This document shows positions 1 through 63,256 of a stretch of 64,000 nt of DNA, one piece after another; position 1 is the first letter of the stretch, and every line of letters starts with the position of its first letter. The position numbers were made by a program, and so were the translations under genes. The notes below the pieces were generated by a model. That model saw nothing but the letters and a program-made list of their open reading frames with translations, was not told where the DNA came from and did not search any database. This DNA is from a virus, in IMG/VR virus record IMGVR_UViG_3300008113_000084, positions 1 through 64,000 of that record, one strand, 5' to 3'.

Positions 1-4764
<4,764 letters not shown>

Positions 4765-4776
4765 CTAAAAGCTAGC

Positions 4777-9388
<4,612 letters not shown>

Positions 9389-14550: not shown

Positions 14551-14928
14551 CTACCTCGTGATCGGAACTGAGGTATCAATTTGACGGTAGACGACTGGTC
14601 CACCTTTTTTCTCTGCGTCAGTGATAGTTACAGAGCTTGCTTTATTATTGCTTTTTTCAACAGCGTTAACCAGAACAACTCGGCTATAGTCAGCGAGCTG
14701 CAAGGCCAGGCCGTTGTCCAGGAAAGTCATGGTAACTGGAGGATTCTTTAGCAGTTCCTCCTTGCAAAAAGCCACGAATTCTTGAATGGCTTTAGCCTTC
14801 TGCTTGGCCGACGTGCCTTTCTGGCCAGACATGAATCGAGCCATCATTGAGTCAAAAAGGTCAAGGTCCTCGTTGGTGGTGATGCCGAAGCCCTGCGATT
14901 TCAGAGCCTGCATTTCTTCAGGAGTCAT
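14551..14928 (-). CDS. Hypothetical protein, 125 aa
   Basis: Not recognised. It has a helical N-terminal half (MTPEEMQALKSQGFGITTNEDLDLF) and a beta-rich C-terminal half. Its ATG overlaps the kdsB stop in ATGA, so the two are translationally coupled. AAAGGA lies upstream. Confidence 0.6.
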   Translation of the reverse strand: MTPEEMQALKSQGFGITTNEDLDLFDSMMARFMSGQKGTSAKQKAKAIQEFVAFCKEELLKNPPVTMTFLDNGLALQLADYSRVVLVNAVEKSNNKASSVTITDAEKKGGPVVYRQIDTSVPITR

Positions 14929-15653
14929 GGCTGTCCTTTCTCTAGCTGCGCTAGAAACCTGTCGTAATCTTCCCGAGTATCCACTCCAACAGACGAGCTT
15001 ACCGAGCTGATGACGTCTATGGTCAAACCAGAGTCGAGCAGTCGAAGCTGCTCCAGCCTGTTGGTTTTCTCGTTCTCTGATTGCGGCAGAGCTGAAAAAG
15101 CCAACAGGCCTTTCTTGGTATAGCCATAAACACCAACATGTCTTTCCAAGAATAGATCGGCAACACCACTTTGTAAAACTTTCCTGCTGAAAGTAACAGC
15201 GCTCTTTCCAGACGGATCGATGTATACCTTCACTACGTTTTCGTTAGACTCGTCTTCTGGAGCTAGCTGCTCGCATAGCGTCACGTAGTCAGAGTCGTGG
15301 TTTTCCAGGAAGCTAAACAAGTTGTCGATGTTGGCAGGGTCTATAAGCGGCTCGTCCGCCTGGACGTTGACAATGCGCTGGACTCCCAGAGACTGGGCAG
15401 CTTCACAGACCCTGTCCGTGCCGCTCTGGTGCTGTCTTGACGTTAAGACACAGTGCGCACCAAAGCTGCTGCACGCCTCCATCACTTCCTGGGAATCAGT
15501 AGCGATGACGGCGAAGTCTGCGGCTTTGCTTTTGAGTGCCTGCTCGTAAACGTGTTGCAAGAGATACTTTCCGCTCTCTTTCAACAGAACTTTGCCAGGA
15601 AGACGTGTCGAATCCAGACGGGCTGGAATGATGACGACGTTTTCTCCGTTCAT
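14925..15653 (-). CDS. kdsB: CMP-Kdo synthetase (3-deoxy-manno-octulosonate cytidylyltransferase)
   Basis: Full-length KdsB-like protein (242 aa; the E. coli enzyme is 248). The nucleotide-binding signature IIPARLDSTRLPGK spans residues 8-21. IATDS (about 50), QHQSGTDRV (about 74-82) and NVQADEPLI (about 95) are the expected CTP and metal motifs. The family joins CTP and Kdo to make CMP-Kdo, the donor for Kdo transfer into lipopolysaccharide or capsule. It overlaps both neighbours by 4 nt, downstream of a GT4 glycosyltransferase. In a phage it presumably supplies Kdo or a related acid sugar for glycosylation; a related sugar such as pseudaminic acid cannot be fully excluded. Confidence 0.88.
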   Translation of the reverse strand: MNGENVVIIPARLDSTRLPGKVLLKESGKYLLQHVYEQALKSKAADFAVIATDSQEVMEACSSFGAHCVLTSRQHQSGTDRVCEAAQSLGVQRIVNVQADEPLIDPANIDNLFSFLENHDSDYVTLCEQLAPEDESNENVVKVYIDPSGKSAVTFSRKVLQSGVADLFLERHVGVYGYTKKGLLAFSALPQSENEKTNRLEQLRLLDSGLTIDVISSVSSSVGVDTREDYDRFLAQLEKGQP

Positions 15654-16729
15654 GCTTTATCCTTTCCGTATCCAAATTGCTCGAGCGTGCTGCTCCAAAA
15701 CTTGAAAAAACTTTCTTTGTGCTTGGCTAGCAGCTTGTGGCTTGTGTTCTTCAGGCTGTGTACAGACTGAGGATCGTTGTTTATAGCCTTGAACATATCG
15801 ACAATCTTTCTGTGGTTGTGCTCAACGTAGCTGACGCCCAGTTCTGTTTGCTTTGTTTCACATGGAATAAGTATGCCGTTAACCCTGTCTGACACAAGCT
15901 CATTCATGGGTGAGTGGTTATAGGTAATGACAGGGGTACCCATAGTCAAGGCTTCTATACCAACATATCCAAAGCTTTCTAGCTGGGTTGGCCAGAACAC
16001 AGCGTCGCAGAGCGAGTAAGCCAGAGGACCTTCCGACCAACCCGTACTGTCGTCGATCAGACCCAGAGAGTTGCCGCCTGTGAACGTCTTCTCGTGCTTC
16101 TTGATGTTGGCCTTGATCTGGCTAGCCACCTTGGAAGAGTAGAGAAAGTCCACGTCGATGGCTGGGCAGGCTTCCAGGGCCTCGTTCAAGGCGTCAAAAA
16201 GTTTGTTGTAATCCACGCGCTTGATCTGATACCCAGGGCAGGCGGTGATGACGCGCAGCCTATCGCCGTTGACTCTTTCGTTGTTGGTGCAGGGCCAGTT
16301 GCAGTCGAAGTAAACATGGCTGATATTGGGCAGGTTCCAGTAGGTCTTGAAATACTCGGTCTGTACCTTGGACGGGCAAACAAGTAAGTCGCACGGTTTT
16401 ACTGACGCCACCGTTTCTGAGTCAACGCTGTCCCACGTTATCGACGAGATGCAGGAGATACCCCGCTTCTTGACGACTTTCATTTCTTTCGATGTGGGGT
16501 AGCTGAAAAAGATGACCAGCTGACATTCGTCTAGCCAGGAGGAGAAATCAACGTCATTTGACGCCTGGACAAAGTCGTCCCAGTAAGCGTGAAGACTGGC
16601 TCTGGTTGTCTTGGTAGCTTTGTCGAAGAAAAGTATGCCGTAGCCTAAGTCTCTGATTACTTCGGCCGTGCGTAGGGCTGCGTAGGTTGAATCGTGACGG
16701 GTGTAGTTGAGAACTATACCTACGCGCAT
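15650..16729 (-). CDS. GT4-type glycosyltransferase, 359 aa
   Basis: GT-B fold. The C-terminal donor-binding domain has the GT4 pattern ESFGYVGIEALTMGTPVITYNHSPMNELV (about 255-285), including the E-x7-E arrangement that contacts the nucleotide sugar. The N-terminal domain begins RVGIVLNYTRHDSTYAALRTAE. It couples to kdsB by an ATGA overlap. It is a retaining glycosyltransferase by family; donor and acceptor are unknown. Confidence 0.82.
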   Translation of the reverse strand: MRVGIVLNYTRHDSTYAALRTAEVIRDLGYGILFFDKATKTTRASLHAYWDDFVQASNDVDFSSWLDECQLVIFFSYPTSKEMKVVKKRGISCISSITWDSVDSETVASVKPCDLLVCPSKVQTEYFKTYWNLPNISHVYFDCNWPCTNNERVNGDRLRVITACPGYQIKRVDYNKLFDALNEALEACPAIDVDFLYSSKVASQIKANIKKHEKTFTGGNSLGLIDDSTGWSEGPLAYSLCDAVFWPTQLESFGYVGIEALTMGTPVITYNHSPMNELVSDRVNGILIPCETKQTELGVSYVEHNHRKIVDMFKAINNDPQSVHSLKNTSHKLLAKHKESFFKFWSSTLEQFGYGKDKA

Positions 16730-16740
16730 GGCACACCTCG

Positions 16741-17364
16741 TCAGTTATGCACATAAAGGTAACTGTCTACCTTAGCGTGCCTCCCTTCTACTGCTTTATG
16801 AAGCTTGTGTATGAAGCTCCAGTCACCAGCAAACGTGAAGTCAGTCCACTGTACCGACTGCACCAACCCCTTTGAAGCCATCCAACAGCCAACATCAATC
16901 TTACCACGCTTCATCTCTGTCTTCATAGGCTGCCATAACTTATGGCTATGTACCATGTTGCAATAAACAAGGTTAGTGCTATCTTTCTGCATCTGATACA
17001 GCATGCTTTCAAAATAGTTTGGAGTGTACCAACAATCTCCGTTGGTTGTGCAAAGCATGTCGCAGCCGTTATCGATCAGAAACTGAAAGCCTGGGTAGCG
17101 CCTCTCATGTCCAAACTTGTTCTGCCTGGTGGGTGTCTCCTGAAAGACAAAGCGTGGGTCTGACCCCGCCACAGACTTGAAGGCTTGCTTGACCTCCTGG
17201 CTGGCAGGTCCGTCGTGAGACACCAGGATTATGAAGTTCTTCCAGGTCTGCGTTTTCAGGCAAGCCAGCAGGGACTGCAAGCAGTCTGTCTGGTTGTATG
17301 TCGCCACGACCATGCCGACTTTGTGATTGTTGCTGAGACTCTTGAGCTTCCAATAACGCATCAC
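16741..17364 (-). CDS. GT2-type glycosyltransferase, 207 aa
   Basis: The GT-A core starts at VGMVVATYNQTDCLQSLLACLKTQTWKNFIILVSHDGP (about 17-53), the standard inverting GT2 opening. CTTNGDCWY (about 107) stands where the DxD metal motif is expected. It is short for the family and lacks membrane segments, so it is soluble. It overlaps the next glycosyltransferase reading frame by 4 nt. Confidence 0.78.
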   Translation of the reverse strand: MMRYWKLKSLSNNHKVGMVVATYNQTDCLQSLLACLKTQTWKNFIILVSHDGPASQEVKQAFKSVAGSDPRFVFQETPTRQNKFGHERRYPGFQFLIDNGCDMLCTTNGDCWYTPNYFESMLYQMQKDSTNLVYCNMVHSHKLWQPMKTEMKRGKIDVGCWMASKGLVQSVQWTDFTFAGDWSFIHKLHKAVEGRHAKVDSYLYVHN

Positions 17365-18101
17365 TTATCCTTCTTAAGCCTGAAAGCGCCCCTGTCCTTA
17401 CCGTTGGGTCGGCGAGTGACACTTCGATAGTGCCACACAAACGAAGAAGGACAGATGGCGATGGTTTTACCCATCTTCAGCCACCTGCCCTCAAGCTCAT
17501 CTTCGTTTTTGGTCATTTTGTGTTTCGGATTGAAAACACACTCTGAGTTAAAAGCACCGCTGAACCAAGTGTCGGTTTTAGCCCCCATGCAGAAGCCGTT
17601 CACTGTCGTGAACCAAAGCTCCTGAGGATACTTGACTTCAACGAACTTTTGAACCGAATCCAGATACTTCAGGTCATCCGTTATCTTGTAGCCCTTCATT
17701 ATCCTGGCTATCTGTTGTTTCGGTTTGTGACCTGGAGCGTTTGTTACGGGACCGACGAGATCGGCGCGACCCTCTAGAAGAGTCCTCGACAGCGTCCTGC
17801 TCCACCCCGCTGGGAACATCACGTCGCTGTTCGTCACCACTGTCAGCGGTATTCCCAGCTCCTTGGCCTTCGACAAGCCCCAGTTCCAGCTTCTGGTCAG
17901 GTTCTTGTCGTTCTTCGGGAAGCGGTGCAGGATCAACCGGTGCTGGGGAAACTTCTGCCAGATGTCCTCCCTCCACTCGGGGCTTGCATCGTCCACCACC
18001 ATCACAAGGCTGTCCGGTGTATTGGCAATCGCTGTCTGCACAGCCTTCAAGGCATACCCCAGATGGTTGTACGTCGGTATAACTATGGCTATCTTCGGTA
18101 C
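17361..18101 (-). CDS. GT2-type glycosyltransferase domain, apparently the shifted second half of a methyltransferase fusion
   Basis: Reading upstream of the first in-frame start (TTG 18050) restores the classic GT2 opening VPKIAIVIPTYNHLGYALKAV, which the TTG start would cut away. Further on are VVDDASPEW, RSWNWGLSKAKELG and TNSDVMF, all normal for GT2. No ATG, GTG or TTG exists in this frame before an in-frame stop near 18170. The domain therefore most likely follows the methyltransferase of 18849 after a +1 slip near 18102-18105. Either one base is extra in the sequence, or the frame change is programmed, or the gene is broken. Confidence 0.7.
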   Translation of the reverse strand, partial: VPKIAIVIPTYNHLGYALKAVQTAIANTPDSLVMVVDDASPEWREDIWQKFPQHRLILHRFPKNDKNLTRSWNWGLSKAKELGIPLTVVTNSDVMFPAGWSRTLSRTLLEGRADLVGPVTNAPGHKPKQQIARIMKGYKITDDLKYLDSVQKFVEVKYPQELWFTTVNGFCMGAKTDTWFSGAFNSECVFNPKHKMTKNEDELEGRWLKMGKTIAICPSSFVWHYRSVTRRPNGKDRGAFRLKKDK

Positions 18102-18849
18102 GAAAGTTCTGCGGCTCTGGAGGGACCTCCACGGCTGGAGCAGGCGTTGACTCCTCCAACACTACAGGATCGGGAGAAGGTGTGGATATAACCTCAACCA
18201 CCTCAGGCACAGACTCGACAGCCTCTGGCTCGACTTCTGACATCGTCACGCGGACGAACTGCACAGACAGGCCGCTCTCGGGATAGTCGTCAACCGGTTC
18301 CAGAACTTCGACGCGCAGGCCGCGTCGGGACTTCAACTCGTTCTCAACCAGGAAGGCACAGCCCTTGGTGAGATCGCCAGGGTAGTAATCATCCAGCAGG
18401 ATTATGGTCTTCTCGTGCGCCAGTTTCAAGGCGTGCTCGAAGTCGGACTGCACCGTGGCCAGAGAGTGACCTCCATCCACGAAAATGATGTCCATCTTAG
18501 GCAGAGTGGGCACAGCTGCTGGCAGCGTCTTTTTAGTATCACCCTTAAACAGCTTGATAATGCGAGCCTTGGTGCGCGTACGCAGGTACTTCATGACCTC
18601 GTCATAGGACTTGGCCAGGGTCTTCTTGCCGACTTCGGCCTCGTTGACCTCTGGGGTCATTTGCTCAAACATGTCGAAGCCGTAATACTCGACGAAAATG
18701 CGGCCGTTGCGAGCGGCCCGCTCAATCATCTGACGGCCGTGGGCTGCATCAAAAACGCCAATTTCCAGAATACGAAGTGGCTTGTGCTTCTTGGAATTGC
18801 CCGAAACTGTATCGACAGATTGGATTAGATGCTGGTACCTAATAGTCAT
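17674..18849 (-). CDS. Class I SAM-dependent methyltransferase, frame-shifted fusion to GT2
   Basis: Residues 1-205 form a Methyltransf_24-type Rossmann domain: LRILEIGVFDAAHGRQMI (SAM site, about 25-42), YYGFDMFE, then MDIIFVDGGHSLATVQSDFEHAL and IILLDDYYPGD. Residues 206-249 are a Pro/Glu/Val linker. Beyond about residue 249 the frame becomes Cys/Pro/Arg/Ser-rich (SRGSRRSRRSRNKRSRS) and looks like out-of-frame translation of the glycosyltransferase that overlaps it. The intended product is probably methyltransferase-linker-GT2. The methyl acceptor is unknown; sugar or lipid-linked glycan is likely by context. Confidence 0.75.
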   Translation of the reverse strand: MTIRYQHLIQSVDTVSGNSKKHKPLRILEIGVFDAAHGRQMIERAARNGRIFVEYYGFDMFEQMTPEVNEAEVGKKTLAKSYDEVMKYLRTRTKARIIKLFKGDTKKTLPAAVPTLPKMDIIFVDGGHSLATVQSDFEHALKLAHEKTIILLDDYYPGDLTKGCAFLVENELKSRRGLRVEVLEPVDDYPESGLSVQFVRVTMSEVEPEAVESVPEVVEVISTPSPDPVVLEESTPAPAVEVPPEPQNFRTEDSHSYTDVQPSGVCLEGCADSDCQYTGQPCDGGGRCKPRVEGGHLAEVSPAPVDPAPLPEERQEPDQKLELGLVEGQGAGNTADSGDEQRRDVPSGVEQDAVEDSSRGSRRSRRSRNKRSRSQTETTDSQDNEGLQDNG

Positions 18850-50074: not shown

Positions 50075-52201
50075 CTAATGCAGGTCTATTGTATGGTCGA
50101 ATAAGTGTCCAATGTTCTTCTCGTGAGTTACCACGAGAATCTGCACACCGTTAGAGGCTGAAAATTGTTTTAATCGGTCAAAGGCTTTCTCCAACGCGCC
50201 CAGGTTAGCCTCGTCCAAACCCACCGTGGGCTCGTCAAGGCAAAGTAAACCCAAGTTAGCAGCGAAAGTGGAATTAACAGCCAACCTGTAGGCGATGGTC
50301 AGGATAACCTTTTGACCGCCCGACAACCTGGCTGCTGGTACTTTCTTAGACCCAAAATTCGCTGTGAATGATAGGTCTTGCTCTAACTCTATATTAAACG
50401 GAACGCCAATCTGAGCCAATGTGTTATTTAGCTCTGTGACAACCTTAGCCATGTACTTGTACGACAGCACCATAGGAAGCGCGTTGTACTTGAATACCTT
50501 TTTAAGGTTGTCAATGCGCTCGTTCCAAGAGTCGTGCAGCGCTGCGAGGCTGAGCTGGTTGCGCGCCGCTTCTATCTTTTGATTGCAATTTTTGACCTCA
50601 GCTTCAGACAGGGCAATGTCCGTCTTCAGCTTCTGGATGCGCGACTTGGTGATTTTCAGCTCGGAAATCACGGTGTTTGCCGAGTTGACGCTGCTCTCGT
50701 CCAGGTCGGAGTAGCCCTTCAGCTCATCCAATTCCTTCTGCATTTCAGCTGTCTGGTGGTCCAGAGAGGTGCCAAGCCTGCCGCCCAAGACATCCAGGGC
50801 GTTGATTTTGTTACCAGTGGCGACGAACGAATCTTTCAGGATTTTCTTCTTTTCCAGTATTCCCTTGGCCTCGTCCCTGGAGACGGAGGGTTGGGCCACC
50901 TCAACCAGATCGGCCAGAGTTTTGTTGGCTGTCTCCAGTCGCTTGACGAAGTTGGTCTTCCAAGCCAGGTGCAGCACCTTCTTCTTGTCAAATGCCGCCG
51001 TGCTGGCGATCTGCTCCGTCAAGGCCGTGATGCTGTCGGACAGAGCCAGCAGCTCCTCCTTGGCCTCAAGCCACTTGTCCTTCAGGTTGCTGGCTGGAGT
51101 ACCGCAGGTGGGACAGCTGGCTGACTCGTCCTCTGGGTTGATGGACGAGATGAACTGGTTGTGTTGGCGCTGCTTGAACTTCAAGCTGTCCAGAGTCAGG
51201 GTCACGGACTCCAAGTCCGTCAGGTAGTCGTAGGGTTGCTGGGGTTCTGGATTCAGCAGCTTCTCGGCCTCCAGGATGTTCAGGGCCTTCTGGGCCTGCT
51301 GCTGCTGGTGGAGGTAGCTGTCGTACTTGATCCACAGCGCCTCGACTTTCAAAGCCTCCTCAGCTGACGGCTCGATCTGGTCTATGGCGTCATGCAAAGC
51401 CAGCAGCTCATCGGTGAGCTCCTGGGTCTTGGCATCGTGCTCCGTCTTATCCTGCTCCAGCTTTTTGATCGCCTCCAGTCGGCTGGCTACAGAGTTCTCC
51501 AGCTTTACCTTTCTTGCCCACAGGCTGACGATGTTGCTGTACTGCAAAATTTCAGAGTCGAGATCGGTCTCGGAAGGCAGTGCTTCCAGGGCAGTCGTGA
51601 GGTCCTTGACAGCCTGCACCGCCTTGCTGAAATTGTCGTTAAGCTCCTGGAGGTTCTGCGAGGCGATGCCGACGGTGGACAGCTTGAGGCTGCCGTCAGA
51701 CAGGTTGTCGCCAATCTTGTTCAGCTGCTCAATCTTGAACAGCTTCTGGAAAGCCGAGATTCGCTTCGCTGCCGACAGCGCCAGAGGACCAAAGTTGTCC
51801 CACTGCTCGACGAAAACGTATTGCCCGAGAATCTCCTTGTCTACCTCCAGGATGTGCAGCAGCTTCTCCAACACTTCCTTGTCCGAGGTGTATATCTTGT
51901 CGTTGACAAACAGCTGGCGGTCCACGGGCTCCAGCCGACGTAGCAGCCGCAGGTCCTGGCTGTTGTGTGAGAAGTGCAGGTCCACACTGCACTCTCCGCC
52001 GTCGGTGTTCAAGGAGATGTTCTCGGCTGCCTTGCCCGCATTCCTGCCGAAGTCGCCAGTCAAAGCGCCGTAGACGGCGTTTAGGATGTTTGACTTTCCC
52101 GAACCGTTAGGACCGACGATGACGTTCAGACCCTTCTGGAACTCGACGGTCCTGCTGATGTGCTGGCAGAAGTTGCGCAGTTTTACCTTCTTAAGAAACA
52201 T
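50075..52201 (-). CDS. SbcC/Rad50/gp46-like recombination nuclease subunit, 708 aa
   Basis: SMC-type ATPase: Walker A NVIVGPNGSGKSNILNAVYG (about 27-46), long coiled coils (about 180-330 and 400-520) around the zinc hook SCPTCG (about 362-367), C-terminal signature ARLSGGQKVILTIAYRLA (about 622) and Walker B LGLLCLDEPTVGLDEAN (about 650). With SbcD it forms the end-processing nuclease that resects double-strand ends for recombination. It overlaps sbcD by 11 nt. Confidence 0.9.
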   Translation of the reverse strand: MFLKKVKLRNFCQHISRTVEFQKGLNVIVGPNGSGKSNILNAVYGALTGDFGRNAGKAAENISLNTDGGECSVDLHFSHNSQDLRLLRRLEPVDRQLFVNDKIYTSDKEVLEKLLHILEVDKEILGQYVFVEQWDNFGPLALSAAKRISAFQKLFKIEQLNKIGDNLSDGSLKLSTVGIASQNLQELNDNFSKAVQAVKDLTTALEALPSETDLDSEILQYSNIVSLWARKVKLENSVASRLEAIKKLEQDKTEHDAKTQELTDELLALHDAIDQIEPSAEEALKVEALWIKYDSYLHQQQQAQKALNILEAEKLLNPEPQQPYDYLTDLESVTLTLDSLKFKQRQHNQFISSINPEDESASCPTCGTPASNLKDKWLEAKEELLALSDSITALTEQIASTAAFDKKKVLHLAWKTNFVKRLETANKTLADLVEVAQPSVSRDEAKGILEKKKILKDSFVATGNKINALDVLGGRLGTSLDHQTAEMQKELDELKGYSDLDESSVNSANTVISELKITKSRIQKLKTDIALSEAEVKNCNQKIEAARNQLSLAALHDSWNERIDNLKKVFKYNALPMVLSYKYMAKVVTELNNTLAQIGVPFNIELEQDLSFTANFGSKKVPAARLSGGQKVILTIAYRLAVNSTFAANLGLLCLDEPTVGLDEANLGALEKAFDRLKQFSASNGVQILVVTHEKNIGHLFDHTIDLH

Positions 52202-53327
52202 TGGCTACTCCCTGTAAATGCTCGTTGCGCATCTCTAACAGCTCCTGCTCGACATTTCCTGAATTGAAGATGCGCACGGCATCCTTGTGGGCGACAGTGC
52301 TTTCGGAGAACCCTGTCTGTTCCACGCATTCAGATATGTCAACAAGCTCTTGTATGTGTTTACGTTCCACAGCTGCCGTGACTTCACTTGAGTTGAAGTC
52401 AGTCGGAATGATTTCGTAATTCCAGTTGCGGAACTTGTCACACAGCAAGTCGTAAGCGTTAGGAATGTTGTTTTGATATCGCACACATACCAGCGGAGTG
52501 GCTATGTGTTCTGGCAAATCCCTGTGCGGCCATTCGATCAGTAAGTCCTCGTTAGTCAGGTTCATCAGTATGTCAAAATGCTTTTCAGACTTGAGCTCAA
52601 ATAGAGCGAATGGCCTAGTCTTAAGACGATACTGAGTCCAACTAAGATCACTGTTCAAAATGAATATGAACTTGTGAGGAGGCTCATTAGTCGCCTGCAT
52701 ATTAATGGAGCCAGAAGACAAACACTCTGTGCCGTCTATGCGCAGAATCTCAGTCTTGTGGTAATCGCCAGTGTAGATAACCTTGGCGAAAGCGGCGTTT
52801 TTGAACATAAAGTTCTCGTCGCTTTTCTTTATAAAGTCAGCCCATACCTGGTGCGTCACGTATAGGTCAAAGCGGTCCTTGCCTGCATAAGAGTGCATGA
52901 CGCGACACTGATCGGCAAAGCGGTTGCCTGAGAACTCGATGTCTTGACCGACGACACGAAGACCCTGTATCTCAAACTCCTTGAACGGCTGGGAAGTCTT
53001 GAAGCTGTCAATATGGACGGCGTTGGAGCACAAGCTCATCCACGGAACTTCTGACAGCTCATGCTGGCCTTGCACGTAGAAAACAGGAATGCCGACGCGC
53101 TCCAACCGTTTCATCTGCTCAAAGCAGAATACGACAGACTCACTGGGCGGCTGTTTGATGTCGAAAAGATCGCCAGCAGCAATTAGAGGAACATCCAGCT
53201 TTATGCAAAGATCAACGATCTGTTGCAGAGAGTAATAAGAATCCCTGTGAACATTTGGATGTTTCTTCCAAGAAAAAGGACTCAGATGCCAATCGGACGT
53301 CAGCACCAGCAGGGGTTTTACAGCCAT
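52191..53327 (-). CDS. SbcD/Mre11/gp47-like nuclease subunit, 378 aa
   Basis: ATG 53327 with AGGAG upstream. Calcineurin-like phosphoesterase motifs: LTSDWHLSPFSW (about 10-21), PLIAAGDLFDIKQPP (about 47-61), FYVQGQHELSEVPW (about 82-95), and DLYVTHQVWAD and IYTGDYHKTEIL (about 155-200). The usual GNHE motif reads GQHE here, so one metal ligand differs. Forms a complex with the SbcC-like product. Divergent from csrA1 across 75 bp. Confidence 0.87.
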   Translation of the reverse strand: MAVKPLLVLTSDWHLSPFSWKKHPNVHRDSYYSLQQIVDLCIKLDVPLIAAGDLFDIKQPPSESVVFCFEQMKRLERVGIPVFYVQGQHELSEVPWMSLCSNAVHIDSFKTSQPFKEFEIQGLRVVGQDIEFSGNRFADQCRVMHSYAGKDRFDLYVTHQVWADFIKKSDENFMFKNAAFAKVIYTGDYHKTEILRIDGTECLSSGSINMQATNEPPHKFIFILNSDLSWTQYRLKTRPFALFELKSEKHFDILMNLTNEDLLIEWPHRDLPEHIATPLVCVRYQNNIPNAYDLLCDKFRNWNYEIIPTDFNSSEVTAAVERKHIQELVDISECVEQTGFSESTVAHKDAVRIFNSGNVEQELLEMRNEHLQGVANVS

Positions 53328-53343: not shown

Positions 53344-53371
53344 TTGAAGTGCTGATGCGGGTCTATACAAT
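53344..53371 (+). promoter_or_regulatory. Candidate sigma70-type promoter for csrA1
   Basis: TTGAAG, 16-bp spacer, TACAAT, ending about 30 bp before the csrA1 start. It lies in the short divergent region facing sbcD. It is the only promoter-like sequence I could place with an obvious plus-strand gene after it. Confidence 0.5.
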
Positions 53372-53386
53372 GTCCCAAGAGGCACG

Positions 53387-53401
53387 TTGAAAGGAGTTCA
53401 A
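53387..53401 (+). promoter_or_regulatory. Hairpin displaying the csrA1 ribosome-binding site
   Basis: TTGAA-AGGAG-TTCAA: a 5-bp stem whose loop is the Shine-Dalgarno AGGAG, just before the ATG. CsrA proteins bind GGA shown in hairpin loops, often over ribosome sites, so this fits self-repression by CsrA1 (inference). Confidence 0.55.
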
Positions 53402-53402
53402 A

Positions 53403-53582
53403 ATGCTCGTTGTGACGCGGAGACCTAAAGAGATTATCAGAATAAATGAGAACATAGTTGTAGAGGTTTTAATCATCAACAATGGAAGTGTCAAGATAGG
53501 CATACAGGCTCCAAAAGATATACCGGTGATGCGTGGTGAATTAAGAGGTTCGTGCAGAAAGACTAGAAAGGATAGCGAATAA
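53403..53582 (+). CDS. csrA: CsrA-family translational regulator, 59 aa (first copy)
   Basis: Starts MLVVTRRPKEIIRINE and continues through IVVEVLIINNGSVKIGIQAPKD to IPVMRGELRG. It aligns from end to end with bacterial CsrA (61 aa): M1-L2, T5, R6, R7, the KIGIxAPK stretch, and Arg44 (the key RNA-contact residue). L4 is Val. CsrA dimers bind GGA motifs in mRNA and block or stabilise translation. Strong AAGGAG site 6 nt upstream. It overlaps the next gene as TAATG. It lies on the plus strand, opposite almost all other genes, so it probably has its own timing. Confidence 0.88.
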   Translation: MLVVTRRPKEIIRINENIVVEVLIINNGSVKIGIQAPKDIPVMRGELRGSCRKTRKDSE

Positions 53583-54214
53583 TGTCAATCAAGTGCGCTG
53601 TTGTCGTGAGTCATCCTGCTGGCGGCGGCAGTCTTATCGCTAAGACGCTTATGGCCATGGGCTTCAAAACTCCAGGCATTCCGTCAGACGAAACCAACGA
53701 CTGGAACCTGGTGGCTGTCAATCAGATCATGTGCGACAGAGCGCACAAACCAAAGATATCCCTAGGCATGGCCAAGCACGCCATGGAGCCTATGACGGGA
53801 TACATCGACGACAAGATCAAAGAGGGCCAAAACTGGATCATGCACGATCCAATGCTGTGCATGACATTTTTCGAGTTCGCGCAGCTGCTGAAGGAAAAGG
53901 GAGTAGACTACAAAATAATAATAGCCCTGCGTAAGCCCCACTACAGCGCGCTGGAAATTGTCAGGTCAGACAAAGAATGGACGCTTGAAGAAGCCTCCAG
54001 CCTGTTGGGAAAATACATCGTAGCCAGGTCTCTAAACACAGACCGCTTCTATCTGGAGAACAAAGAAGACGTGTCGCGTGTGCTGCATCTGGACGTCAAC
54101 AGTCTGCTGGACGACACAGACAAGGCAGTAGAGCTGTTGGCTACAGAAATTGGCGTCGAGCTGACTGACGAGGCTAAGGAAGCAATTGGAAAGCTGCTCA
54201 AGCCTGCGTCTTGA
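53582..54214 (+). CDS. P-loop protein, sulfotransferase-like, 210 aa
   Basis: N-terminal AVVVSHPAGGGSLIAKTLMAMGF (about 6-28) resembles the phosphate-binding loop and helix at the start of PAPS-dependent sulfotransferases. KIIIALRKPHYSALEIVRSDKEW (about 111-133) resembles their 3'-phosphate-binding strand and helix (R...S). A sulfotransferase would fit the sugar theme, but a kinase-like P-loop protein cannot be ruled out. It follows csrA1 with a one-base overlap and ends inside hldE (17-bp convergent overlap). Confidence 0.5.
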   Translation: MSIKCAVVVSHPAGGGSLIAKTLMAMGFKTPGIPSDETNDWNLVAVNQIMCDRAHKPKISLGMAKHAMEPMTGYIDDKIKEGQNWIMHDPMLCMTFFEFAQLLKEKGVDYKIIIALRKPHYSALEIVRSDKEWTLEEASSLLGKYIVARSLNTDRFYLENKEDVSRVLHLDVNSLLDDTDKAVELLATEIGVELTDEAKEAIGKLLKPAS

Positions 54215-55655
54215 CGCCTTCAGCCGTTCTGGTGGTAGACATGTCAGGAACCATGTCTACCAGCATCAGCTGACCGCCGCTGTTCACAACGAACTCTGCG
54301 CCAGGAACAACAGAAGACACGTACTCGGAACCCTTGACAAGGATGTCCGGTTTGACCGCCTCGATCAGAGGCACCAGCTCTTCCTGCTCAAATGTGACAA
54401 CGGCATCAACGCACTCCAGGGCCGCAACCATACGCGCCCTGTTGGCAGCGCCGACAAACGGCCTGCCTTCCCCTTTGAGTGCCTTGATGCTGGCGTCGCT
54501 ATTCACACCAACGAGAAGATAGCCACCAGCGAATTTAGCCTGCTCGAGCAGATGCACGTGGCCTGCGTGCAATAGGTCGAAGCAGCCGTTGGCGAATACA
54601 ATCTTCTCGTTGGTAGATCGGAGTTGCTGCGCCCAAGACAGCGCAGCCTGCTGAGACATCAGCTTGGACAGAGAGCTAACCTGCGTGGGTCGGGCCATAA
54701 ACAGGTCCAGCTCCATGCGGTGAACAACAGTAGTGCCAGGCTTGGACACAGCCAAAGCGCTGGCCGCGTTGGCAAAGACGATAGCGTCCCGAATCGAGCG
54801 GCCCTCGCAGATGGCTACAGACAGCGCGGCTATAAAAGTATCTCCAGCTCCTATGACGTCTGTCTTGCAGGTTGTGAAGGCAGGCAAGCTGCCAGCCGTT
54901 TTGGTGTTGTTGTCGTACCAGCTGCAACCGTTTTGCGCCCGAGTTACCACGGCCAGGGACAGGTTGGGCAGACGCTGCGCCAACTGCGCGGCAAGAGACT
55001 CGCAAGCGGAGTCGCTTTTGGAAGACACGGCTCTGGCATCGACACCAAGCACAGCACAAGCCTCGTTGAAATTGGGCGTGATACAGTCGGCGCTGTGCCA
55101 GTCCAGCATGCCCGACGGCTTGGCGTCTACGAACAGAAAAATATTGGGGTGGCTTGAGCGTATATCCTGTAGGGCCTGGCGCAGCTCTGGGCTGACAGCT
55201 CCCTTGGCGTAATCAGAAACAATGATGGCCTTGATGTCCCTGCTAACGCTTCTGAGCTTGAACAGAACATTCTCCTGAAACTTGCCGTAAGTGGGCGAGG
55301 CGTCTGCCCGCATCTCTCTGTCGGTGCGCAGCACCTGGTAGCCTCCGACCATAATGCGCGTCTTGACAGATGTGTGGTACTCAGACAGCGTCGTAACATC
55401 TGTCGAGACATTCATAGTGTCGAGGCTGAATGTCAGGCGCTTGGCTTCGGGGTCAGCTCCGACCGGCGAGAACAGGATAACGGGGCTGTTGAGAGCCTGG
55501 ATCGACGAAGCGACGTGGGCGGCACCGCCTGGGCAAAACATCTCGTACTTGGTGGTGACGACAGGAACGGGGGCCTCTGGCGATATCCTGTGTACGTCGC
55601 CGTGGACGTAGTGATCCAGGATGGAGTCGCCGACAACCGCGATAATGGTAGACAC
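54198..55655 (-). CDS. hldE: Bifunctional heptose 7-phosphate kinase / heptose 1-phosphate adenylyltransferase
   Basis: 485 aa versus 477 in E. coli. The N-terminal PfkB-type kinase (1-320) begins IIAVVGDSILDHYVHGDVHRISPEAPVPVV, has CPGGAAHVAS and ends its active site with TDVIGAGDTFIAAL (about 263). The C-terminal nucleotidyltransferase has VFANGCFDLLHAGHVHLLEQAK (about 351), GVNSDASI and ILVKGSEY. Both halves look intact. HldE makes ADP-glycero-manno-heptose, the heptose donor for LPS inner core. It complements the kdsB gene at 14925. Confidence 0.92.
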   Translation of the reverse strand: MSTIIAVVGDSILDHYVHGDVHRISPEAPVPVVTTKYEMFCPGGAAHVASSIQALNSPVILFSPVGADPEAKRLTFSLDTMNVSTDVTTLSEYHTSVKTRIMVGGYQVLRTDREMRADASPTYGKFQENVLFKLRSVSRDIKAIIVSDYAKGAVSPELRQALQDIRSSHPNIFLFVDAKPSGMLDWHSADCITPNFNEACAVLGVDARAVSSKSDSACESLAAQLAQRLPNLSLAVVTRAQNGCSWYDNNTKTAGSLPAFTTCKTDVIGAGDTFIAALSVAICEGRSIRDAIVFANAASALAVSKPGTTVVHRMELDLFMARPTQVSSLSKLMSQQAALSWAQQLRSTNEKIVFANGCFDLLHAGHVHLLEQAKFAGGYLLVGVNSDASIKALKGEGRPFVGAANRARMVAALECVDAVVTFEQEELVPLIEAVKPDILVKGSEYVSSVVPGAEFVVNSGGQLMLVDMVPDMSTTRTAEGVKTQA

Positions 55656-55856: not shown

Positions 55857-56315
55857 TCAGTCGGACAAGTCATCGGCGTCCTCTGACTCGTCGTGCGCAG
55901 CAAACAGCCTGCCCCCAAGCCCGTCTTTGCGCTTTCGGTTCCTGCAAAACTTCTCAAGCATCACGGAAGCGTCCTTGTAGTTCTTGAACTCCGTGAGCGT
56001 GAAAGTCACTTCAGGATCACCGACGGCCTTGGCGTAGGGCTCAGTCCAAGCGTCCGCTCTTGTATGCTGCCATCTACTGTTAAATATTTCAAGAACATCT
56101 ATTGCTTCTTGATATGTGTAAGTCTGTTCATCAAGCGGAAACGTTTTAAGCTTAATAAACACATATATTTCCCTGTCGTCTTTAACTTGGCCGTAGTTTA
56201 CTTTGACATCCTGGTCTGACGGCAGATAAGGAATATGAGGAACAACCACTTTAAACTGTCGTCCCTTGAAGTTCTTGAGGAAGTCTTCAATAGATGGCTG
56301 CATAAGCTGACCCAT
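55857..56315 (-). CDS. Hypothetical protein, about 152 aa
   Basis: The longest frame starts inside the terminator of the upstream gene, so I place the start at ATG 56315 (or 56303), though neither has a clear ribosome site. Alpha/beta with a basic C-terminal stretch (CRNRKRKDGLGGR) and acidic end. Not recognised. Confidence 0.55.
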   Translation of the reverse strand: MGQLMQPSIEDFLKNFKGRQFKVVVPHIPYLPSDQDVKVNYGQVKDDREIYVFIKLKTFPLDEQTYTYQEAIDVLEIFNSRWQHTRADAWTEPYAKAVGDPEVTFTLTEFKNYKDASVMLEKFCRNRKRKDGLGGRLFAAHDESEDADDLSD

Positions 56316-61350: not shown

Positions 61351-62536
61351 TGACGTACTCCGTAGCCGCTGTAACATTCTCTTTCTGCAAGAACGCATGT
61401 TCAATCACAGCGTATCGCTTGTTGTACTTGGCTATGTACTTGAAAAAGTTAGCGGCTCGGCTCAAAATATTACGCGCCGTTTGCCAACCAATTTCGTCTT
61501 TGCTGGCTTCTTTAACTAACTCAGCTGTGTACACAGCCATAGAGTTTAGAGTTGAGTCATTTATTTTGTGATCCAAAGTCAAAGATATGCATGCGTACTC
61601 AGGCCATAAACGTGGTTCTTCAGCGTACCCCTTCTCGATTTCTGGTGGTAAGGCGCTTACAGTTTTGTTGAGATACTTTGCCAAGTTTTCTGTAGCCGAG
61701 TCAATGTAAGACGCGCTGTCTGTGTCTTTTGACAAAAACTTTACTGCTGCTTTCAAATATCTAACAACGTTTTCCGCTAAACGAACATTGTAAATAAAAA
61801 AGATGTCATCTAAATAGTTTGCAAACCTAAAGCTTGCTTTTAACGTTTCGTTATAACGCTTCGCTTCCTTATGCTCTGGAGCGTCTGTATCCTCGTACCT
61901 GCTTGCGATTCTGGCATTGTACTGTTCTTTTGTTAAGCTGCTTTGTTCTAGCTTTGTGTTGATCAAATCCCAAGCAGCCGCATACGCGTCCGTTGCGGCG
62001 TTTAAACGAGCATCGTCTTTAGTGACTTTAAGGTACGCCACAACCTTAGCAAACTCGTTTACTACCCTGTGCGTTCTGTCGTCTCCAAAAAGAGACGCAA
62101 ACCACTTTTGCCGCCTGCCGCACATCTCGATGATTTTGTTGAACTTTCGTATTTTTTTGTCTATGCTTTTGTCTATAGCTTCGCTGTGTTTGTTTTCGCT
62201 ATAAGCTTCTTGAAAGTATATAAATAATTTTTCTAACCCCCAGTAGTATCCGAGCCGTTCGTTTACTGGTACAACATACCTACTTTCAAATTCAGGCCAT
62301 GGTGTTTTCCTTACCTCGCTGACATATTTTGCGCACTCATAAAACTCTTCAAGCAACGGGGTCTCAAACGCCGCATCGCCGATCAGCTCTGGGTTTTCTT
62401 TCAGGTATTTTATAATACCGTAATTGCTCCAGTTTGATGGCGGCTTCTTTAGCTTCTTTTTCTGCTTGGTTTTTGCTTCGTCTTTTTTGTCCAAGCTAGT
62501 AAGCAACCTCGATATCGTGTTGAATGCTTCGCTCAT
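61328..62536 (-). CDS. Helical hypothetical protein, 402 aa
   Basis: ATG 62536 (MSEAFNTISRLLTSLDKKDE) is the most natural start, overlapping the upstream gene by 41 nt; the ribosome site is weak. Nearly all helix, with no catalytic motif or membrane segment. AT content is visibly higher than in the replication genes. Not recognised. Confidence 0.6.
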   Translation of the reverse strand: MSEAFNTISRLLTSLDKKDEAKTKQKKKLKKPPSNWSNYGIIKYLKENPELIGDAAFETPLLEEFYECAKYVSEVRKTPWPEFESRYVVPVNERLGYYWGLEKLFIYFQEAYSENKHSEAIDKSIDKKIRKFNKIIEMCGRRQKWFASLFGDDRTHRVVNEFAKVVAYLKVTKDDARLNAATDAYAAAWDLINTKLEQSSLTKEQYNARIASRYEDTDAPEHKEAKRYNETLKASFRFANYLDDIFFIYNVRLAENVVRYLKAAVKFLSKDTDSASYIDSATENLAKYLNKTVSALPPEIEKGYAEEPRLWPEYACISLTLDHKINDSTLNSMAVYTAELVKEASKDEIGWQTARNILSRAANFFKYIAKYNKRYAVIEHAFLQKENVTAATEYVNAFKRTS

Positions 62537-62996
62537 ACTTCCACCATTCTGGTATGTCCCTGTCTCGCCACGCTGCCATGCTGGCTTTGTCGTGTATGTA
62601 GTAGGCACGATAAGCGTCTACTGCGTCGTGGCACTTGTATTTGTCAGGCATCGCCTGAGCAAAGTCTGTAAAGCTGCTTTCAGGTATGTGCTTGGACAGC
62701 CTGAAGCATTGATTGATTATGTGGTAACACTTGTGGACTTTGCCGTACCTAAACCTGTACTCGTGGCACAGTTCTAGTCCCAGGTCAACCAACCATAGGA
62801 AGTTCTGACGTGTCTCCCTTGTCCATATTGAACATGGGTGGTTCTTGTGCGCTTGTTTGTACGGAGCGGTGCCGCCATGAAAAATAACGGCCGTACACAG
62901 CATCTGCGCTGATTCCAGGGGCATCTTGACCACGTGCTTGTCCAGGTGATACCTGGCGCACAGCTGCGTGTCCCTGTCCAGGATGAATATGTTCAT
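62496..62996 (-). CDS. Conserved phage protein of unknown function, 166 aa
   Basis: The opening MNIFILDRDTQLCARYHLDKHVVKM, followed by ESAQMLCTA, HKNHPCSIWTRET, FRYGKVHK, FAQAMPDKYK and AYRAYYIHDKA, matches a family I have seen in many phages and a few bacteria. Invariant His, Asp and Lys residues suggest an enzyme, but the activity is unknown to me. Coupled by ATGA to csrA2. Confidence 0.75.
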   Translation of the reverse strand: MNIFILDRDTQLCARYHLDKHVVKMPLESAQMLCTAVIFHGGTAPYKQAHKNHPCSIWTRETRQNFLWLVDLGLELCHEYRFRYGKVHKCYHIINQCFRLSKHIPESSFTDFAQAMPDKYKCHDAVDAYRAYYIHDKASMAAWRDRDIPEWWKYERSIQHDIEVAY

Positions 62997-63199
62997 TCAA
63001 CATCGTCTTCAGACTCTTCCAGTAGCTCTTCCCTAAAGATTGCCACCTTTTCTGACGCGTTGAACCGAAGAGAAACTTTTCTCGGGTCGATCCAGGTCAC
63101 GGTTATCCATATCTTTTCGTCTCCTATCATAAGCATTACTTTCTGGCCAGGTTTGCGAGTAAGAACCAGTCCTGGCTTTGCTTCGTCTTCTTCGTCCAT
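62993..63199 (-). CDS. CsrA-like RNA-binding protein, 68 aa (second copy)
   Basis: After a 10-residue acidic leader the sequence reads LVLTRKPGQKVMLMIGDE...ITVTWIDPRKVSLRFNASEKVAIFREELLEE. This is the CsrA strand order: LxLTR, the IGD turn, ITV, VxxRxxA, then V-x-x-REEL. The residues equivalent to Leu4 and Arg44, needed for RNA binding, are kept, but the usual G-x-x-AP segment is changed. Its ribosome site GGAGG lies inside a switch-like hairpin (63205-63244). It differs strongly from the copy at 53403, so it is not a recent duplication. Confidence 0.72.
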   Translation of the reverse strand: MDEEDEAKPGLVLTRKPGQKVMLMIGDEKIWITVTWIDPRKVSLRFNASEKVAIFREELLEESEDDVE

Positions 63200-63204
63200 G
63201 TTTT

Positions 63205-63244
63205 CCTCCGCAAGTTTTGCGGAGCTTGCGTCACTATTCTCCGC
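63205..63244 (-). promoter_or_regulatory. Switch-like hairpin pair controlling the csrA2 ribosome site
   Basis: In transcript order: GCGGAG (63244-63239), CTCCGC (63224-63219), GCGGAG (63211-63206, containing the Shine-Dalgarno). The middle element can pair with either copy: 7 bp with the first, leaving the ribosome site free, or 8 bp (CTCCGCAA / TTGCGGAG, loop AAC) with the second, hiding it. Both outer copies hold GGA, the CsrA core motif. Confidence 0.55.
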
Positions 63245-63256
63245 ATTTTGGCTGCG

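What the first reader, a model, noticed from the sequence alone, without database searches (positions are those of the whole stretch)
53403..53582. Phage-encoded CsrA on its own plus-strand unit
A full-length CsrA homologue with conserved Arg44 and the T-R-R and IGIxAPK segments is encoded by a phage. It is on the strand opposite to nearly all other genes, with its own candidate promoter and a P-loop gene after it. CsrA normally controls host carbon flow, motility and biofilm by binding GGA motifs in mRNA. A phage copy could reprogramme host translation or time phage genes.
Basis: partly seen in the sequence, partly recalled or inferred. Interest (0 to 1): 0.85.

Follow-up and report, generated by a model that had tools for sequence, protein, structure and literature searches.

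The report
Phage CsrA at a conserved locus
This virus of bacteria carries a real copy of the bacterial RNA-binding regulator CsrA, as some other known phages do; the new points are that its uncultivated large-phage relatives keep the gene at the same place, on the opposite strand and with its own promoter, and that this phage also carries a second, divergent CsrA.

Summary
Window 53403-53582 (+) encodes a genuine CsrA-family protein (Pfam CsrA, 62 bits) with R6, A36, P37 and R44 intact. A sigma-70-like promoter lies at 53344-53371. The stop codon overlaps the start of the next gene (TAATG). That gene is sulfotransferase-like, not a classical Walker-A protein.

The window is part of an 89-kb record of a tailed phage in an uncultivated clade with contigs up to about 235 kb. 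In 14 lineages csrA sits between sbcCD and hldE (or a neighbouring zinc-ribbon gene), always on the opposite strand. Thirteen of the 14 have their best promoter match at one distance from the start codon. R44 is invariant, and dN/dS of the core is 0.12-0.16. At least six lineages lack csrA at that place.

Two-copy genomes also occur in three other clade lineages.

Phage CsrA itself is published, so this is a new member of a known kind. The most likely role is early expression by host RNA polymerase and GGA-directed control of host mRNA translation. Targets, host and RNA binding were not shown. A clade-wide autoregulatory hairpin was tested and not supported.

The parts
53344..53371 (+). sigma-70-like promoter of csrA1: TTGAAG (53344-53349), 16-nt spacer, TACAAT (53366-53371)
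   Evidence: shuffle p 0.017 for this leader; Fisher p 1.5e-6 over 15 leaders, two with wrong starts; corrected starts: rank 3 of 106 leaders; orthologues vs all leaders of this record p 4e-8; -10 at -35..-46 in 13 of 14 lineages
53392..53396 (+). Shine-Dalgarno AGGAG of csrA1, containing a GGA; lies in the loop of a possible TTGAA/TTCAA hairpin not conserved in orthologues
   Evidence: (combined p 0.72 and 0.99: no clade-level support)
53403..53582 (+). csrA1, 59-aa CsrA-family protein
53582..54214 (+). gp2, sulfotransferase-like protein (210 aa); start overlaps the csrA1 stop (TAATG)
   Evidence: homologues match Pfam Sulfotransfer_1/3; AlphaFold model pLDDT 74, best PDB hits tyrosylprotein sulfotransferases E 1e-5, TMq about 0.6
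52191..53327 (-). SbcD-like nuclease, conserved divergent neighbour of csrA1
   Evidence: synteny; next to SbcC (phrog_77); named from position and conserved metallophosphatase-type motifs, no Pfam hit of its own
50075..52201 (-). SbcC-like ATPase
   Evidence: Pfam SMC_N 5e-20, phrog_77 1e-34
54198..55655 (-). HldE-like bifunctional heptose kinase/adenylyltransferase, conserved convergent neighbour
   Evidence: Pfam PfkB and CTP_transf_like, phrog_7878; synteny
62993..63199 (-). csrA2, second, divergent CsrA-family protein (68 aa, N-terminal extension MDEEDEAKPG)
   Evidence: PF02599 44 bits E 2e-11; orthologues in G007 and G009
63206..63245 (-). csrA2 leader: anti-SD CTCCGCAA (63217-63224) can pair with the SD strand TTGCGGAG (63206-63213) or with upstream TGCGGAG (63239-63245); the two folds have equal predicted energy
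   Evidence: rank 2 of 106 SD-pairing stems, shuffle p 0.0005; p 0.002 on re-test; both folds -21.0 kcal/mol; noticed by eye first; not found in other csrA2 leaders

Best explanation
csrA1 is a phage-borne CsrA/RsmA regulator transcribed from its own host-type (sigma-70) promoter, against the direction of the surrounding replication and metabolism genes, and so probably made early. The protein should form the usual small dimer and bind GGA motifs near ribosome-binding sites, mainly of host mRNAs, adding to or overriding the host Csr/Rsm state in the phage's favour (metabolism, surface and motility genes, possibly defence mRNAs). gp2 is probably translationally coupled to it. Shown here: family membership, intact RNA-contact residues, purifying selection in close pairs, conserved position, strand and promoter. 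Inferred: early timing, dimerisation, RNA binding, host targets.
For: CsrA profile match. R44 in all 25 clade CsrAs and R6 in 24 of 25. dN/dS 0.12-0.16 over the CsrA core in two close pairs. csrA between sbcD and hldE, or the neighbouring zinc-ribbon gene, on the opposite strand in 14 lineages. Conserved sigma-70-like promoter. No tyrosine or serine integrase match in 7 clade records, so no sign of lysogeny. Literature: csrA knockdown in phage PTXU04 reduces plaque size (PMC11879866); RsmA represses cas mRNAs and phage CsrA tracks with CsrA-bearing hosts (PMC8450108).
Against: Host unknown, so no host target could be examined. Below the NCBIfam csrA equivalog cut-off (54 vs 70-73 bits). At least six clade members lack csrA at the locus, so it is not essential. 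dN/dS rests on two pairs of a short gene. Promoter evidence is consensus matching. No expression data.
Confidence: 0.55

Rival explanations
1. CsrA1 mainly times the phage's own genes: it binds GGA-containing ribosome-binding sites of phage mRNAs, including possibly csrA2, and delays or boosts their translation.
For: Phage SDs are GGA-rich; leaders average 1.87 GGA against a background of 1.32 per 100 nt; the csrA2 leader has 4 GGA and a possible two-state SD hairpin. Vertical retention in a phage lineage fits a role inside the phage.
Against: The GGA excess is what SD sequences alone would give. No clade-wide GGA-in-loop hairpin in csrA1 leaders (p 0.72) and no SD-pairing stem shared by csrA2 leaders (p 0.56). 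Several relatives lack csrA at the locus.
Confidence: 0.25
2. CsrA1 (or CsrA2) is an interfering subunit: it forms mixed dimers with host CsrA or competes for CsrB-type RNAs, changing the host regulator's activity rather than choosing its own mRNAs.
For: CsrA acts as a dimer; divergent C-terminus and G45 in CsrA1; N-terminal extension in CsrA2.
Against: RNA-contact residues are kept under purifying selection. No Rfam family, Csr-type RNA included, matches in the window.
Confidence: 0.12
3. A passenger gene recently picked up from a bacterium, with no role in the phage.
For: csrA1 has lower G+C (0.40) than the genome (0.52); csrA genes move widely on mobile elements (PMC7366521).
Against: Same position and strand in 14 divergent lineages, conserved promoter, low dN/dS.
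Confidence: 0.04

Closest known systems
Phage-encoded CsrA/RsmA (Sobrero and Valverde 2020, PMC7366521; Campa et al. 2021, PMC8450108)
   Same: Small PF02599 protein on a phage; conserved RNA-contact residues; proposed host manipulation
   Different: Those papers are surveys of many phages; here csrA is syntenic, on the opposite strand and with its own promoter, in an uncultivated large-phage clade, and a second divergent CsrA is present
csrA homologue PTXU04_00028 of coliphage PTXU04 (PMC11879866)
   Same: csrA in a phage; the only experimental test of phage csrA found here (knockdown reduces plaque size)
   Different: Different phage; sequence similarity to PTXU04 not compared here; listed GenBank matches to the terminase and DNA polymerase are all below about 30% identity
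RsmA/RsmN in Pseudomonas aeruginosa and CsrA/CsrR in Legionella (own knowledge; both named in reference lists of papers read)
   Same: Two CsrA-family proteins in one genome, one possibly acting on the other
   Different: Bacterial chromosomal pairs with shown regulation; here the link between the two phage proteins is only a hypothesis
CsrT of Legionella integrative elements (cited in PMC7366521)
   Same: CsrA paralogue inherited with a mobile element
   Different: Linked to a type IV secretion system, not to phage replication genes

Membership tests
CsrA/RsmA family (PF02599) | Profile match above curated cut-off | tested here: met
   62.4 bits vs 27 for csrA1; 44 bits for csrA2
CsrA/RsmA family (PF02599) | RNA-contact residues L4/R6 and R44 | tested here: met
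   V4 (conservative), R6, R44 in csrA1; R44 in 25 of 25 and R6 in 24 of 25 clade proteins
CsrA/RsmA family (PF02599) | Interlocked five-stranded dimer | not tested
CsrA/RsmA family (PF02599) | Binding to GGA motifs in mRNA | not testable with these tools
   Needs a gel shift or CLIP
Bacterial csrA equivalog (NCBIfam TIGR00202/NF002469) | Equivalog score cut-off | tested here: not met
   54 bits vs 70.1 and 73: family member, not a canonical csrA orthologue
Phage-encoded CsrA | csrA inside a phage genome rather than on a host contig | tested here: met
   Same 89-kb record has TerL (phrog_675), DNA polymerase and tail fibres; synteny in related virus records
Sulfotransferase (gp2) | Sulfotransferase family match and fold | tested here: inconclusive
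   Homologues hit Pfam Sulfotransfer_1 (2.5e-6 for L056); gp2 itself has no hit; fold resembles sulfotransferases, E 1e-5; PAPS motif degenerate (HPAGGGS)
   Sequence HPAGGGSLIAKT; closest folds are sulfotransferases, weaker hits to nucleotide kinases

The most novel reading that the evidence does not exclude
The phage runs a two-CsrA circuit: an early, sigma-70-driven CsrA1 acts on host RNAs and also flips the two-state leader of csrA2 mRNA, releasing its Shine-Dalgarno, so that the second CsrA takes over later with different targets.
Probability: 0.07. Interest if true: 0.75.

Novelty: new member of a known kind. Interest (0 to 1): 0.42.

Why it matters
What phage csrA genes do is almost untested. 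A lineage that keeps csrA at one place, on its own strand and promoter, with some members having none at the locus and others two copies, is a natural comparison set. It shows that csrA can be a lasting part of a phage lineage rather than a stray acquisition, and it gives defined genomes in which to ask what the gene is for.

Tried and rejected
Autoregulatory hairpin (SD GGA in a TTGAA-AGGAG-TTCAA loop): attractive in this phage (p 0.04), but across the csrA1 leaders combined p is 0.72. SD-pairing stems are not shared by csrA1 (p 0.99) or csrA2 leaders (p 0.56). Csr-type sRNA sponge: no Rfam match in the window at gathering score and none meaningful at relaxed E-value in 52-64 kb. Host assignment: the one genome scan gave a single MAG contig labelled Alphaproteobacteria with a 49%-identical terminase, which may be a mis-binned phage, so no host is claimed. 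Direct GenBank phage search with CsrA1 found nothing at E 0.1, a sensitivity limit: E. coli CsrA found 94 records. On the TerL tree presence or absence at the locus needs six changes; G108's terminase was read out of frame there and its position is unreliable. Single-sequence fold of gp2 was poor; with five homologues usable.

Full report
Observation. The ORF at 53403-53582 (+) encodes MLVVTRRPKEIIRINENIVVEVLIINNGSVKIGIQAPKDIPVMRGELRGSCRKTRKDSE. It matches Pfam CsrA at 62.4 bits, far above the 27-bit cut-off, PHROG 9500 and solved CsrA/RsmA proteins. It falls below the NCBIfam equivalog thresholds, so it is a family member and not a canonical csrA orthologue.

The record. The window is part of an 89,381-base virus record. 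A virtually identical copy is IMGVR_UViG_3300008262_000133. Phage identity rests on a terminase (phrog_675), DNA polymerase, tail fibres and a DnaB-like helicase. GenBank phages hold only distant relatives: terminase about 29% identity to Salmonella phage Arash and Vibrio phage D69, neither of which has a CsrA match.

Second CsrA. A search of the record with PF02599 found a second match, 62993-63199 (-), 68 aa with an N-terminal extension. Orthologues lie at a similar distance from the terminase in G007 and G009, in G009 also beside a homologue of 62496-62996; the close relatives G010 and G011 have none. Two CsrA copies also occur in G090, G093 and G108 of the same terminase clade, and in 3 of 48 other CsrA-bearing IMG/VR records (a fourth, G050, had only a sub-cut-off fragment). 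Each of the 94 GenBank phage records matched by E. coli CsrA had one place, at the sensitivity of tblastn.

Conserved locus. Terminase searches gave an uncultivated clade with contigs up to 235 kb. After iterated profile searches (with for G032), 14 lineages show 49058 - SbcC - SbcD on one strand (with the 47471 helicase where the stretch reaches that far), csrA on the other, then HldE or, where HldE is missing, the zinc-ribbon gene 55668 again on the first strand: G000, G010/011, G012/013/014/024, G028/030, G032, G035, G084, G085, G087/089, G090, G093, G094, G106, G108. Identity of the flanking SbcC and SbcD is as low as 26-28%, so this is old synteny. Six lineages have SbcD and HldE adjacent but no csrA between them: G015, G018, G027, G036, G088, G112; G036 and G112 have a CsrA elsewhere. 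One ancestral gene with repeated loss is the simplest reading because position and strand are constant, but the terminase tree alone does not decide it.

Selection. R44 is invariant in 25 clade CsrAs (15 csrA1-type rows, of which G023 is not at the sbcD-hldE locus, and 10 others), R6 in 24. Nei-Gojobori dN/dS over the CsrA core is 0.12 for G084/G087 and 0.16 for G085/G035.

Promoter. In this phage TTGAAG-16-TACAAT at 53344-53371 is the third best match among 106 gene leaders. Over 14 csrA1 lineages the best match has median score 9.3 against 4.8 for leaders of this record (p 4e-8), and in 13 of 14 the -10 lies 35-46 bases before the start codon. Shuffle-based scans gave Fisher p 1.5e-6 before two start codons were corrected. 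Leaders are related, so these p-values overstate independence, but the sequences are divergent. Early expression by host polymerase is inferred from this, not shown.

gp2. The next gene overlaps csrA1 by one base (TAATG), suggesting coupled translation. Its homologues, directly after csrA in G010/G011 and about 2 kb downstream in G035, G084 and G087, match sulfotransferase families. A model built with five sequences (pLDDT 74) is closest to tyrosylprotein sulfotransferases (E 1e-5, TMq about 0.6). The PAPS-binding motif is degenerate in gp2, so activity is uncertain.

Leaders. A GGA-in-loop hairpin at the csrA1 ribosome site is not conserved. The csrA2 leader of this phage can form two exclusive stems of equal predicted energy, one hiding the Shine-Dalgarno. 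I noticed this by eye before testing and no relative shares it, so it is only a lead.

Known context. CsrA in phages is published: 30 of 2,517 phages (PMC7366521); many in GenBank and IMG/VR, correlated with CsrA-bearing hosts and proposed as a possible anti-CRISPR (PMC8450108); Vibrio phage J26 ORF99 (PMC12038007); and knockdown of PTXU04 csrA reduces plaque size, the paper stating that the role had not been tested before (PMC11879866). At least 403 IMG/VR loci encode a relative. This finding is therefore a new member of a known kind, with the conserved opposite-strand locus and the double csrA as new details.

Limits. Host unknown, expression unknown, no CsrA structure predicted (jobs spent on gp2), record probably incomplete (89 kb against about 190 kb for the longest contigs of close relatives), promoter evidence by consensus only.

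Noticed in passing
62993-63199 (-): Second CsrA-family gene in the same phage, with an N-terminal extension and a two-state SD hairpin in its leader.
   Followed up: yes
53582-54214 (+): Gene after csrA1 is sulfotransferase-like; homologues in G010/G011 directly after csrA and in G035, G084, G087 about 2 kb downstream.
   Followed up: yes
L243 (G108) and L244 (G112), CsrA proteins near the terminase: Two clade CsrA proteins carry an insertion of roughly 25-30 residues in the first beta-hairpin region; function unknown.
   Followed up: no
L031 (G023) and L029 (G021), terminase genes: Terminase of G023 is interrupted after GRQVSK by CMDENELVLLADG..., which looks like an intein; L029's longer match suggests another. 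Not tested.
   Followed up: no
1-9388 (-): Three long genes; the two tested (1-4752 and 6254-9388) are collagen-like tail-fibre proteins with extensive internal repeats, similar to each other.
   Followed up: partly
14925-18849 and 54198-55655 (-): Sugar genes: CMP-sugar cytidylyltransferase-like, glycosyltransferase, methyltransferase and HldE-like enzyme; possible surface-glycan or DNA/virion modification.
   Followed up: no
just upstream of 55857-56315 (-): 11-bp perfect stem (ATAGGCTTGAG/CTCAAGCCTAT) followed by a T-run just before the gene start; looks like a terminator.
   Followed up: no
L214, contig VBAH01000059.1 (MAG Alphaproteobacteria AP_29): Only genome-collection hit to the clade terminase (49%); 199-kb contig, perhaps a mis-binned phage or a host clue.
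   Followed up: no
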